48,692 nucleotides of DNA, from the NCBI GenBank assembly GCA_937862865.1, contig CALMFJ010000014.1, positions 1 through 48,692 on the forward strand. Direction: 5' to 3'. Position 1 is the first letter of the stretch, and the number at the start of each line of letters is the position of its first letter. This document shows, in pieces, positions 30,407 to 37,637 of this stretch. The notes under the pieces are model-generated. The model was not told where the DNA came from and made no database searches. It saw only the letters and a program-made list of their open reading frames with translations. Source of the stretch: an uncultured Pseudomonadota bacterium (GTDB taxonomy: Bacteria > Desulfobacterota > Syntrophorhabdia > Syntrophorhabdales > Syntrophorhabdaceae). Both the position numbers and the translations under genes were made by a program.

Positions 30407-31837
30407 CTATTCCTTTATACCTGCAAGCCTCTTCGCCGCCTTCTTCTTGTCATTGACGTTCGTTTCCCGGAAGATCGTGACCCTGTGGGCCGCAGGAGAA
30501 CCGCCGCCGTGGATATCGGAGATCGTGTCGGCGCTCTCGAGGGCCAGCTTTTCGGCAAGACGGTACATCTTGATCCGTTTTTCGACCGGGATGCTGTCCA
30601 CGCCCTTGAGATACTTCTTCAGGAGATCACCAACCTCGGGGTTCGAGAAATCGCGGTCCGAGGGCAGGTCCGCGACAAAGCCGCCGCACGCGTCGATCAT
30701 GAGCCGGGTCGCTTCGGCCATCTCTTTGCCCTCATGGATCTTGGAGGCGTTCGCAAGGACCGTATCTATGTAGTACGTGCCCGAAGGCTGTTTCGTTCCT
30801 TCGTAAGAGGAAGCGAGGCAGCACCCATAAAGGGTCTCCGCCCTGTGGATCATGTCGATGACCTTCTCTTTCAGGTGGCCGACCTTGGATGTACCGTTGA
30901 AATCCATCATCGTCAGGGCGCAGCCTATCATGCAGTCGATCTTGCCTGCCTTGCACCCGCCGTGGCTCTGGCGATGGAGTGCCGAGAATTTGACGACCAT
31001 GTCCTGAGCGAATTCCGACTCACCGAACAGGAACACCCTTTCCCACGGGACGAACACATCGTCCAAGATAAGGGTCTGGCAGTATTTTGAGTAGTACTGG
31101 TTCCCTATGTCGCAGCCGTCAAGTTCGCGCATATCAAGGGTCGACCGGCCGACAACATGGATGAGCCCCTTCGTGTCTGCAGGCACCGCAAACGCAAGGG
31201 CATAATCCTTATCCTCTTTCGCCATTGCACGGGAAGGAAGCACGATGATCTCATGGGCGGAAAGGGAGCCCGTCTGGTGGGCTTTGGCCCCGCGGACAAC
31301 GATGCCGTCTGCCTTTTGCTCGACCACGCGGACGAACATGTCCTTGTCCACCTGTTCATGCGGGGCAAGCGACCTGTCGCCTTTGACGTCCGTCACGCCT
31401 GCATTGGCCGTAAAGTCATTTTTCTGCATGTATTTCAAAAATTCCTGGAATCTCGGGAAATACTCGGTATTGTATTTCTGGTCCACATTATACGTAACAA
31501 CCGCAAGAGCGGTAAGGCAGTCGAGCCCTGTACAGCGCTGATGGCATGTCCCGACGTAATTGGCCAGCTTGCGGTTCACCTTGACACGTGCCACAAGGTC
31601 CTCAAGGGTCGACGGGGGAAGCGTGAAACGGTTGACCGGTTCGTTGATGAGCGGGCTTGTCGTGATCATCAGGCCCGGGTCAAGCTGTGCCATTTCATAC
31701 GTGGCCCCGGTTGCCTCTATACCGGCGCGCAGGCGCGGATTATCGACAATATTGGTAAGCCTTTCTCCAAACATGTACGCTACCGGATTGAGGGACCGCA
31801 GTGATTCGATATATTCGTCTTTAGTCTTGATGCCCAT
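30407..31837 (-). CDS. abfD: 4-Hydroxybutyryl-CoA dehydratase / vinylacetyl-CoA isomerase-type [4Fe-4S] flavoenzyme
   Basis: 476 aa, HpaB-like acyl-CoA-dehydrogenase fold. The cluster ligands of 4-hydroxybutyryl-CoA dehydratase are all present: C98 and C102 (CHQRC), H288 and C295 (HRQSHGGC), with the spacing of the clostridial enzyme. The flavin-monooxygenase relatives of HpaB lack these, so the dehydratase reading is favoured over 4-hydroxyphenylacetate hydroxylase. It dehydrates 4-hydroxybutyryl-CoA to crotonyl-CoA by a radical mechanism; related members handle other hydroxyacyl-CoAs. AGGAGG precedes the ATG. It is co-transcribed 45 bases after a GntR gene, convergent with dctM. Confidence 0.88.
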   Translation of the reverse strand: MGIKTKDEYIESLRSLNPVAYMFGERLTNIVDNPRLRAGIEATGATYEMAQLDPGLMITTSPLINEPVNRFTLPPSTLEDLVARVKVNRKLANYVGTCHQRCTGLDCLTALAVVTYNVDQKYNTEYFPRFQEFLKYMQKNDFTANAGVTDVKGDRSLAPHEQVDKDMFVRVVEQKADGIVVRGAKAHQTGSLSAHEIIVLPSRAMAKEDKDYALAFAVPADTKGLIHVVGRSTLDMRELDGCDIGNQYYSKYCQTLILDDVFVPWERVFLFGESEFAQDMVVKFSALHRQSHGGCKAGKIDCMIGCALTMMDFNGTSKVGHLKEKVIDMIHRAETLYGCCLASSYEGTKQPSGTYYIDTVLANASKIHEGKEMAEATRLMIDACGGFVADLPSDRDFSNPEVGDLLKKYLKGVDSIPVEKRIKMYRLAEKLALESADTISDIHGGGSPAAHRVTIFRETNVNDKKKAAKRLAGIKE

Positions 31838-36117: not shown

Positions 36118-36146
36118 TTGACAACGTATCCCCGCTCCGATAAACT
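36118..36146 (+). promoter_or_regulatory. Promoter of the tyrosine-leader / aminotransferase unit
   Basis: -35 TTGACA (36118-36123), 17-base spacer, -10 TAAACT (36141-36146). The expected start is 36152-36154, only two to four bases before the leader ATG at 36156, so the leader peptide would be translated from a nearly leaderless mRNA. Confidence 0.7.
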
Positions 36147-36155
36147 CTTGCCAAT

Positions 36156-36242
36156 ATGTTGAGAATCGACACATCTATCCGGACCTTCTCTTACTATTAC
36201 TATTATTATTCCCCCGGGCACTCGTGTCGATCTTTCTCCTGA
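36156..36242 (+). CDS. Leader peptide with six consecutive tyrosine codons
   Basis: 28-codon ORF (ATG 36156 to TGA 36240-36242, followed by TAA in frame after one codon boundary). Residues 13-18 are Tyr-Tyr-Tyr-Tyr-Tyr-Tyr, encoded TAC TAT TAC TAT TAT TAT at 36192-36209; residues 11 and 27 are Phe. It lies right behind a promoter and right before two tandem hairpins, the second an intrinsic terminator, in front of an aminotransferase gene. This is the layout of amino-acid-sensing attenuators such as trp, his and phe operons, here tuned to tyrosine. Segment ATCGACAC (36165-36172) is perfectly complementary to GTGTCGAT (36224-36231), enclosing the Tyr codons. No ribosome site is present, in line with near-leaderless initiation. 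The ORF is too short for homology evidence; confidence rests on architecture. Confidence 0.75.
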   Translation: MLRIDTSIRTFSYYYYYYSPGHSCRSFS

Positions 36243-36254
36243 TAAGGTAAAGAA

Positions 36255-36285
36255 AGGGGCCATGGGTGCAAAACCCATGGCCCTT
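36255..36285 (+). promoter_or_regulatory. Attenuator hairpin 1
   Basis: GGGCCATGGGT (36257-36267) pairs with ACCCATGGCCC (36273-36283), an 11-bp stem with a 5-base loop, extendable by two weaker pairs. It starts 13 bases after the leader stop codon, about where a ribosome on the stop would reach. Its 3' arm can alternatively pair with the 5' arm of the terminator (CCATGGCCC 36275-36283 with GGGCCATGG 36296-36304), giving an antiterminator. Confidence 0.75.
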
Positions 36286-36294
36286 AAAGCTTTC

Positions 36295-36326
36295 AGGGCC
36301 ATGGACAGGATCCATGGCCCTTTTTT
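36295..36326 (+). terminator. Intrinsic terminator upstream of the aminotransferase (attenuator)
   Basis: AGGGCCATGGA (36295-36305) pairs with TCCATGGCCCT (36311-36321), an 11-bp stem with a 5-base loop, followed by an uninterrupted T run (36321-36326). It lies after the leader ORF and 60 bases before the aminotransferase ATG. Because its own promoter is upstream, it would end most leader transcripts unless antitermination occurs. Confidence 0.88.
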
Positions 36327-36386
36327 ATGTCGAGAAAGGAAAAGGGAAATGAACACAAATTCAAGAAACAACGGAGGAGGAAAGTC

Positions 36387-37637
36387 ATGAAAGGTCGGGA
36401 AGAAATGAAGGCACAGGACACCAGGGTCCTGGACATACTGGAAGGTGACGGGATATCGCCTTTCGGCATGCGGTTTGACCCCGTACACGGTGGCGGCGCG
36501 CAGCGCCTTCACATGATACGTGAGTCTTTCATCAGGGAAATGACGCGGCTCGCCATTACGCACAATGCCATCAACCTGTCGCAGGGATTCCCTGATTTCG
36601 ATCCGCCGCGTGAGGCGATCGAGGCGGCGCAGGAGGCCCTTGCGTCAGGCGGGAACCAGTACACGATCACCTGGGGAACGCTTCCGCTCCGCGAGGCCAT
36701 TGCCGCCAAGATGAGCAAATGGTACGGACTCGCATTCGAGCCCAACGAACATATAACGGTAACGTGCGGGGTCACCGAGGCCATCCTTGCCACACTGATG
36801 GGGACCATCAACAAGGGCGATGAGGTTATCATTATCGAGCCCTACCACGAGGGATACCTTCCCGCCGTCGTATTTTCGGGCGGCATACCGCACTTTGTGC
36901 CGCTTGAATCCCCGGACTACACCCTCGACCTCAACCGGCTTCGCAATGCGTTCAACGAACGGACAAAGGCGATCATCGTCAATACGCCCCACAACCCCAC
37001 CGGTCACGTCTTCACACGTGAGGAGCTGGAGGGGATAGCCGAATTGTGCCAGGAATTCAACGTTGTCGCGATCACCGACGAGATCTACGAACATATAACG
37101 TACGATGGCCTTACGCATACCCCGCTCGCCGCGATACCCGGCATGGCGGAAAGGACAGTGACGATCAGCGGACTTGGCAAGACATTCGCGATGACGGGTT
37201 GGCGCCTTGGATACGCCTGCGCCCTGAACCCCTTGAGCACGATCCTCCGCACGGTCCATGACTTTATGACCATTTGCGCCCCCGCCCCCCTCCAGGCGGC
37301 ATGCGCGGCAGTCCTTCAGCTTCCCGACTCATATTATACACAGCTTCAGGCCGACTACACGCAAAGACGCGAAAAAATGATGTCGATCATCGACAGGGCC
37401 GGGTTCCGTGCATCACCCATACAGGGCTCTTACTACGTGATGGCCGATTTCAGCAACTGGGATTTCGACGGCGATGACTACTCCTTCGCCCGCTGGCTGC
37501 CGGCAAATCTCGGTGTGGCGGTAGTCCCCGGGTCATGTTTCTACGGAACGAAGGGAATGGGCAAGAAAATGGTCCGTTTTGCATTCGCAAAGAAACTGGC
37601 GACGCTTGAAGCCGCAGAAGCGCGGCTTTGCAGGTAA
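36387..37637 (+). CDS. Class I PLP aminotransferase (kynurenine/methionine/aromatic type)
   Basis: 416 aa, fold-type I aminotransferase of the I-gamma subgroup (kynurenine aminotransferase, glutamine transaminase K, YbdL-like), which favours aromatic amino acids, methionine and glutamine. NLSQGFPDFDPP (substrate/N-terminal segment, residues 63-74), NTPHNPTG (N203), DEIYEH (D231 near PLP nitrogen) and SGLGKTFAMTGWRLGY (Schiff-base lysine K265) are all present. The start at 36387 follows GGAGGAGG. Expression is probably set by the tyrosine leader attenuator directly upstream, which supports an aromatic substrate such as tyrosine (inference). A bidirectional terminator follows. Confidence 0.92.
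   Translation: MKGREEMKAQDTRVLDILEGDGISPFGMRFDPVHGGGAQRLHMIRESFIREMTRLAITHNAINLSQGFPDFDPPREAIEAAQEALASGGNQYTITWGTLPLREAIAAKMSKWYGLAFEPNEHITVTCGVTEAILATLMGTINKGDEVIIIEPYHEGYLPAVVFSGGIPHFVPLESPDYTLDLNRLRNAFNERTKAIIVNTPHNPTGHVFTREELEGIAELCQEFNVVAITDEIYEHITYDGLTHTPLAAIPGMAERTVTISGLGKTFAMTGWRLGYACALNPLSTILRTVHDFMTICAPAPLQAACAAVLQLPDSYYTQLQADYTQRREKMMSIIDRAGFRASPIQGSYYVMADFSNWDFDGDDYSFARWLPANLGVAVVPGSCFYGTKGMGKKMVRFAFAKKLATLEAAEARLCR

What the first reader, a model, noticed from the sequence alone, without database searches (positions are those of the whole stretch)
36118..36386. Tyrosine leader peptide and terminator: a candidate tyrosine attenuator for an aminotransferase
Within 270 bases there is a promoter (TTGACA/TAAACT), a 28-codon ORF whose codons 13-18 are six consecutive Tyr codons, two tandem GC-rich hairpins, the second with a T run, and then a well-placed ribosome site and an aminotransferase of the aromatic/methionine type. 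Six Tyr codons in a row by chance in a short ORF is very unlikely. The trp/his/phe operon logic is established; a tyrosine-only leader of this type upstream of an I-gamma aminotransferase is, to my knowledge, not a standard textbook case.
Basis: partly seen in the sequence, partly recalled or inferred. Interest (0 to 1): 0.88.

Follow-up and report, generated by a model that had tools for sequence, protein, structure and literature searches.

The report
Tyrosine-sensing leader switch for an aminotransferase
Upstream of an aminotransferase gene in the anaerobe Syntrophorhabdus lies a short coding sequence with six tyrosine codons in a row and a set of competing RNA hairpins, which together look like a switch that lets the enzyme be made only when tyrosine runs short; the same RNA design recurs with phenylalanine, tyrosine and tryptophan codons before other aromatic amino acid genes in related bacteria, and a tyrosine-only version does not appear to have been described.

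Summary
Confirmed and extended. The promoter, the 28-codon ORF with Tyr codons 13-18, two hairpins, the T run and the aminotransferase (AT) are all there. TAY x5 occurs at only one place in the 2.6 Mb genome. All 11 other homologous leaders (10 Syntrophorhabdus genomes, one other genus; nine with the complete AT beside them) keep 5-8 Tyr codons. Termination state: 1:2, 3:4, 5:6 (7 pairs with compensatory changes). Antitermination state: 2:3, 4:5 (all pairs kept in 11/11 aligned). The last Tyr codon lies exactly 8 nt before segment 2 in 11/11. Folding predicts antitermination only for a ribosome stalled at Tyr. The leader mRNAs appear leaderless. A covariance model shows one member of a family, absent from Rfam, of aromatic leader attenuators: Phe/Tyr leaders before a sister AT, Trp/Tyr/Phe before DAHP synthase, Trp before a TrpB-like gene. 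Sister-AT leaders are depleted of Tyr codons where the Tyr-AT exists; a genome that lost it carries a relict, frameshifted Tyr leader. Known mechanism; new amino-acid specificity and RNA family. No expression data.

The parts
36118..36146 (+). sigma-70-like promoter TTGACA-17-TAAACT
   Evidence: -35 box conserved in 10/10 leaders (window included) whose contig reaches it, -35 to ATG distance 38 nt (35 in L010)
36156..36242 (+). leader peptide ORF, 28 aa, MLRIDTSIRTFSYYYYYYSPGHSCRSFS; start 9 nt after the -10 box, no Shine-Dalgarno: probably leaderless
36192..36209 (+). six consecutive Tyr codons (regulatory codons 13-18)
   Evidence: 5-8 Tyr codons in the 11 other homologous leaders
36165..36172 (+). 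segment 1 (AUCGACAC), pairs with 36224-36231
   Evidence: four pairs with compensatory changes
36218..36226 (+). segment 2 (GCACUCGUG), pairs with segment 3 at 36261-36269; its 3' end also pairs with segment 1 (36224-36231)
   Evidence: 8 nt after the last Tyr codon in all 11 aligned leaders
36256..36269 (+). segment 3 (GGGGCCAUGGGUGC): 5' part pairs with segment 4, 3' part with segment 2
36274..36285 (+). segment 4 (CCCAUGGCCCUU): pairs with 3 (termination state) or 5 (antitermination state)
36295..36305 (+). segment 5 (AGGGCCAUGGA)
36311..36326 (+). segment 6 and T run: intrinsic terminator with segment 5
36349..36390 (+). second mini-ORF, 13 codons (MNTNSRNNGGGKS), stop overlaps the AT start as ATGA; probable translational coupler
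   Evidence: sequence; homologues with strong SD (script; by eye)
36387..37637 (+). regulated gene: class I/II aminotransferase (KAT / YbdL / aromatic type), proposed tyrosine aminotransferase

Best explanation
It is a tyrosine-specific, ribosome-mediated transcription attenuator of the his type (six RNA segments). Transcription starts at or within a few bases of the leader AUG, so the leader is translated from a leaderless mRNA. When Tyr-tRNA is charged, the ribosome runs to the UGA (36240-36242), covers part of segment 2 and reaches to 3-4 nt before segment 3. Hairpin 3:4 then forms, 5 is left for 6, and RNA polymerase terminates at the T run. When charged Tyr-tRNA is scarce, the ribosome stalls early in the Tyr run and leaves segment 2 (8 nt after the last Tyr codon) free. 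Segment 2 pairs with 3, 4 is freed and pairs with 5, terminator 5:6 fails, and the aminotransferase, probably the enzyme making Tyr from 4-hydroxyphenylpyruvate, is transcribed. Without translation, 1:2 sequesters part of segment 2 and the default is termination. Shown here: sequence, conservation, compensatory changes, geometry and predicted folds. Inferred: the start site, stalling, response to Tyr-tRNA and the enzyme's substrate.
For: Tyr run in all 11 homologous leaders found beyond the window. Termination-state helices: 96.6% of cells paired, 7 pairs changed on both sides, 0/500 shuffles as good. Antitermination helices: 100% of cells paired, one compensatory pair. Segment 2:3 beats at least 95 of 100 shuffles in 60 of 68 family members and covaries in divergent ones. 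Last Tyr codon to segment 2 is 8 nt in 11/11 aligned leaders; 2:3+4:5 is the predicted minimum-energy state at intermediate RNA lengths in 9/11 with a stalled ribosome, never with a ribosome at the stop codon or absent. The same scaffold with matching codons sits before DAHP synthase, a sister AT, PheA-like and TrpB-like genes. The locus in G004, which lost the AT, has a frameshifted Tyr run and no attenuator hairpins.
Against: No RNA or expression data. Enzyme specificity is inferred from the leader codons and weak family resemblance. The 4:5 and 3:4 arms are nearly invariant in the Tyr leaders, and the antitermination helices alone do not beat shuffles there (96/500); the support comes from the wider family. 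The complete termination state is more stable than the complete antitermination state (-42.2 against -28.5 kcal/mol), and 3:4 is the predicted minimum over part of the transcript even with a stall, so the switch must be kinetic. In L002 and L010 the antitermination state is never the minimum.
Confidence: 0.88

Rival explanations
1. A leader-peptide attenuator in which the nascent peptide itself, with an effector such as free tyrosine or 4-hydroxyphenylpyruvate, stalls the ribosome (TnaC-like) rather than a lack of charged Tyr-tRNA.
For: The C-terminal residues KGHSCRTFS are conserved in most Syntrophorhabdus leaders.
Against: Those codons encode segment 2 and are explained by RNA pairing; L010 lacks the tail and stops within segment 2. 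The family shares the scaffold while the codon content changes with the target gene.
Confidence: 0.05
2. Translational (ribosome-binding-site) attenuation: the hairpins control access to the AT start rather than termination.
For: A mini-ORF with its own strong Shine-Dalgarno lies between terminator and AT and overlaps the AT start.
Against: The last hairpin ends in a T run of 5-8 in most members and lies about 50 nt before the AT Shine-Dalgarno in the window; no predicted arm contains that site.
Confidence: 0.04
3. A constitutive tandem terminator behind the upstream GyrI-like gene, with a Tyr run that is incidental or codes for a small functional peptide.
For: The hairpins lie downstream of the GyrI-like gene on the same strand.
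Against: The promoter and ORF lie between that gene and the hairpins; the Tyr run, 2:3 and 4:5 are conserved while the flanks are not; G029 has the element although the gene upstream of it is unrelated and on the other strand.
Confidence: 0.03

Closest known systems
his operon attenuator of enteric bacteria (from own knowledge)
   Same: Six segments, three stacked hairpins for termination, two alternative hairpins for antitermination, a run of codons for the end product
   Different: Tyr instead of His; single aminotransferase gene; predicted leaderless leader; sequence unrelated (no Rfam match)
trp / pheA leader attenuators
   Same: Ribosome stalling on codons for the pathway product selects antiterminator over terminator
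   Different: Two extra segments here; tyrosine codons only
Corynebacterium glutamicum aroR leader upstream of aroF (Neshat et al. 2014, as described in PMC11802643)
   Same: Aromatic leader peptide (Phe-Tyr-Phe) in front of an aromatic biosynthesis gene
   Different: That leader responds to Phe and not to Tyr; other phylum; here Tyr only, 5-8 codons
Sinorhizobium meliloti trpL (PMC7298713)
   Same: The attenuator RNA begins with the AUG of the leader ORF (leaderless)
   Different: Trp codons; trpE(G)

Membership tests
ribosome-mediated transcription attenuator (trp/his class) | Short translated leader ORF with a run of codons for the amino acid made by the regulated gene | tested here: met
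   Six Tyr codons in the window; 5-8 in 11 homologous leaders. That the gene makes Tyr, and that the ORF is translated, are inferred
ribosome-mediated transcription attenuator (trp/his class) | Intrinsic terminator between leader and gene | tested here: met
   11-bp hairpin plus TTTTTT
ribosome-mediated transcription attenuator (trp/his class) | Mutually exclusive antiterminator whose formation depends on ribosome position | tested here: met
   2:3 and 4:5 against 3:4 and 5:6; geometry and ribosome-position folding; prediction only
ribosome-mediated transcription attenuator (trp/his class) | Expression responds to charging of the cognate tRNA | not testable with these tools
   No RNA data available
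Rfam families, including known amino-acid leaders and the T-box | Covariance-model score at or above gathering cut-off | tested here: not met
   No match in the window or in ten related leader loci; best weak match in the leader 20.1 bits against a cut-off of 43
tyrosine aminotransferase (enzyme) | Transaminates 4-hydroxyphenylpyruvate / tyrosine | not testable with these tools
   Class I/II fold family; nearest curated families below cut-off; solved relatives include kynurenine, methionine (YbdL) and aromatic aminotransferases

The most novel reading that the evidence does not exclude
The element is the tyrosine-specific member of an undescribed family of leaderless, mostly six-segment aromatic amino acid attenuators in Syntrophorhabdia and some other lineages of the phylum. 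Their regulatory codons (Tyr, Phe, Trp or mixtures) have been re-tuned as enzymes were gained and lost: where a dedicated Tyr aminotransferase with a Tyr-only leader exists, the sister aminotransferase leader has shed most of its Tyr codons.
Probability: 0.72. Interest if true: 0.72.

Novelty: new variant of a known kind. Interest (0 to 1): 0.64.

Why it matters
Textbook attenuators sense Trp, His, Phe, Leu, Ile/Val and Thr; the closest reported leader with Tyr codons (C. glutamicum aroR) responds to Phe, not Tyr. A Tyr-only attenuator fills that gap. The family also offers a readable record of regulation: the codon run states which amino acid each uncharacterised aminotransferase serves, giving enzyme-specificity predictions in anaerobes with little genetics, and shows one RNA scaffold re-coded for several amino acids.

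Tried and rejected
A first structure string had the wrong length and one protein reference had wrong coordinates. Simple trp-type pairing of the leader tail with the bases just 5' of hairpin 3:4 was considered and dropped: those bases form a separate hairpin around the stop codon and do not overlap segment 3. A reductive route from arylacetates (acyl-CoA synthetase, indolepyruvate oxidoreductase, aminotransferase) was considered because Tyr leaders also precede an acyl-CoA synthetase-like gene; oxidoreductase-alpha matches occur in all 45 genomes searched and the genes do not cluster with it, so it is left open. A T-box was ruled out by the Rfam scan. Viral contigs held only one distant AT homologue. 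Literature searches for tyrosine-codon leaders found none.

Full report
Observation. Every element reported is present at the stated place. The leader ORF 36156-36242 reads MLRIDTSIRTFSYYYYYYSPGHSCRSFS, with Tyr codons 13-18 at 36192-36209. Five or more Tyr codons in a row (TAYx5) occur only here in the 2.64 Mb genome; the reversed control pattern is absent. The region folds at z -6.6 against dinucleotide shuffles.

Host. Orthologues at 77-87% identity fall in the same genus, and two of them correspond to records titled Syntrophorhabdus sp. PtaB.Bin047 and Syntrophobacterales bacterium Delta_02. The window genome is therefore taken to be a Syntrophorhabdus.

Conservation. Eight other Syntrophorhabdus genomes and one genome of another genus (G029) hold the complete aminotransferase (AT) with its upstream DNA; G007 holds a contig-truncated AT, and in G001 only the leader lies on the contig. 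These eleven further leaders all carry 5-8 Tyr codons. Distant AT homologues, at about 53% identity or less, lack any Tyr run. The element is therefore lineage-specific but fixed within its lineage. Because the leaders come from related genomes, conservation alone is not independent evidence; the compensatory changes are.

Architecture. Eleven leaders (the window plus ten) were aligned. Termination state: 1:2 (36165-36172 with 36224-36231), 3:4 (36256-36266 with 36274-36285), 5:6 (36295-36305 with 36311-36321), then TTTTTT. It is 96.6% paired, with 7 pairs changed on both sides, against 1.9 in shuffles and 0/500 as good. Helix 1:2 carries most of these changes, chiefly through the divergent L010. 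Antitermination state: 2:3 (36218-36226 with 36261-36269) and 4:5. All 198 cells pair; L010 has the compensatory change GCGCUCAUG:CAUGGGCGC. On these eleven alone the antitermination helices do not exceed shuffles, because they hardly vary (96/500).

Family. A covariance model of the leader (R1) finds the Tyr leaders at E 1e-24 to 1e-32 and weaker matches in most genomes of the family and order. In 395 genomes drawn from the phylum it also reaches one further family and two single genomes, one of which (G065) has no convincing aromatic leader. Reading these matches shows leader peptides rich in aromatic codons before aromatic genes. Leaders with Phe/Tyr codons (e.g. MNRFMIPSNFYYFYFSSLHPCTFML) precede a second aminotransferase, here called the sister AT. 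Leaders with Trp/Tyr/Phe codons (e.g. MISDLRKSAAGYWYFYWRNAHPGRFLS) precede DAHP synthase. A Trp/Phe/Tyr leader precedes a chorismate mutase/prephenate dehydratase-like gene, and Trp leaders precede a TrpB-like gene; these gene names rest on sequence reading, not on family searches. In 68 members, segment 2 lies just after the regulatory codons and pairs with segment 3; 60 of 68 beat at least 95 of 100 shuffles, and divergent members covary, e.g. GGUCACCCAU:AUGGGUGACC (L196), GGCUCAUCCAU:AUGGGUGAGCC (L248), GUGAAACCGU:GGCGGUUUCAC (L245). In L175 and L235 the CCATGG core has changed together in all four arms, as 4:5 pairing requires. Some members (L192, L195, L241, L243) lack the second hairpin and are plain four-segment attenuators. 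None matches Rfam.

Ribosome geometry. In all eleven aligned leaders the last Tyr codon is 8 nt from segment 2. In ten, a ribosome at the stop codon would overlap segment 2 by about 5 nt and end 3-4 nt before segment 3; in L010 the stop codon lies within segment 2 itself. Folding growing transcripts beyond an assumed ribosome edge gives 2:3+4:5 as the minimum-energy state at some lengths in 9 of 11 leaders when the ribosome stalls at the first Tyr codon, and never when it is at the stop codon or absent. Complete termination is more stable than complete antitermination, so the outcome depends on timing, as is usual for attenuators. Stalling at the last Tyr codon covers segment 2, so the first codons of the run should matter most.

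Leaderless start. In all ten Tyr leaders whose contig reaches the -35 box, the ATG lies 35 or 38 nt after the first base of that box, that is at about the expected +1. In 51 of 62 other family leaders an aromatic-rich ORF starts 35-45 nt after a -35-like box (50 of them within 41 nt; the search window was 33-45 nt, so this is a fit and not an independent measurement). Pairing to the anti-Shine-Dalgarno is near zero for most. A leaderless attenuator ORF has a precedent in S. meliloti trpL (PMC7298713).

Functional inference. The wider pathway is present: the window genome encodes an aro gene cluster in which one gene carries a chorismate mutase-like N-terminus and a prephenate dehydrogenase domain. 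The AT is a class I/II enzyme of the kynurenine/YbdL/aromatic group; its substrate is inferred from the leader. Two comparative observations support tyrosine. First, the sister-AT leader has a Tyr share (Tyr/(Tyr+Phe)) with median 0.125 where the Tyr-AT is present (n=11) and 0.43 where it is absent (n=25), Mann-Whitney p 9e-6; this is not corrected for phylogeny and the first group is mostly one genus. Second, in the clade G000/G004/G009 (support 1.0), G000 and G009 keep the Tyr-AT and have FFFSFFFF in the sister leader. G004 has no AT orthologue, has YYSKLFFF in the sister leader, and at the syntenic place keeps the start of a Tyr leader with a frameshift in the Tyr run and without the attenuator hairpins, next to an MFS gene. 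This is one event in one draft genome.

Second ORF. Between terminator and AT a 13-14 codon ORF with a strong Shine-Dalgarno ends in the ATGA overlap with the AT start, in seven homologues by script and in L001, L007 and L008 by reading; L010 lacks it. Translational coupling is the likely role.

Prior knowledge. The library held no paper on tyrosine-codon leaders. The nearest report is the C. glutamicum aroR leader, Phe-Tyr-Phe before aroF, which responds to Phe and not Tyr (Neshat et al. 2014, described in PMC11802643). The library misses most subscription journals, so absence there is not proof of novelty.

Verdict. A well-supported Tyr-specific attenuator of established mechanism, with a new amino-acid specificity and in a new RNA family; regulation itself is untested.

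Noticed in passing
L179:2434-2584 (own genome, contig C122): A Phe-only leader (FFFSFFFF) with the same scaffold precedes the sister aminotransferase in the window's own genome.
   Followed up: yes
L164, L165, L168, L192, L195, L200, L235, L241, L250, L251: Trp/Tyr/Phe leaders with terminators precede DAHP synthase in related genera.
   Followed up: partly
L178 and L202 (G025:C106); L183 and L203 (G021:C96): Tyr-run leaders (two in tandem in G025: YYYYYYYY and YYYYYYW) precede an ADP-forming acyl-CoA synthetase-like gene; why Tyr should control it is unknown.
   Followed up: partly
L206 (G004:C88, 5957-6122): Relict Tyr leader with a frameshift at the Tyr run where the aminotransferase has been lost and an MFS gene lies instead.
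   Followed up: yes
window 36349-36390: A 13-codon ORF overlapping the aminotransferase start by ATGA; equivalent ORFs in the other Syntrophorhabdus loci.
   Followed up: partly
L181 (G025:C85), L246 (G014:C38): Aromatic-codon leaders (WFNFYYFYYY; FGLFYFYYF) before an undescribed 480-527 aa protein.
   Followed up: no
L253 (G026:C53), L245 (G034:C168): Trp-codon leaders (WIWWW; WWW) before a TrpB-like gene, with a 2:3 pairing of different sequence in L245.
   Followed up: partly
window 30407-31837: HpaB-domain protein (4-hydroxyphenylacetate 3-hydroxylase family) with a GntR-type regulator gene beside it.
   Followed up: no
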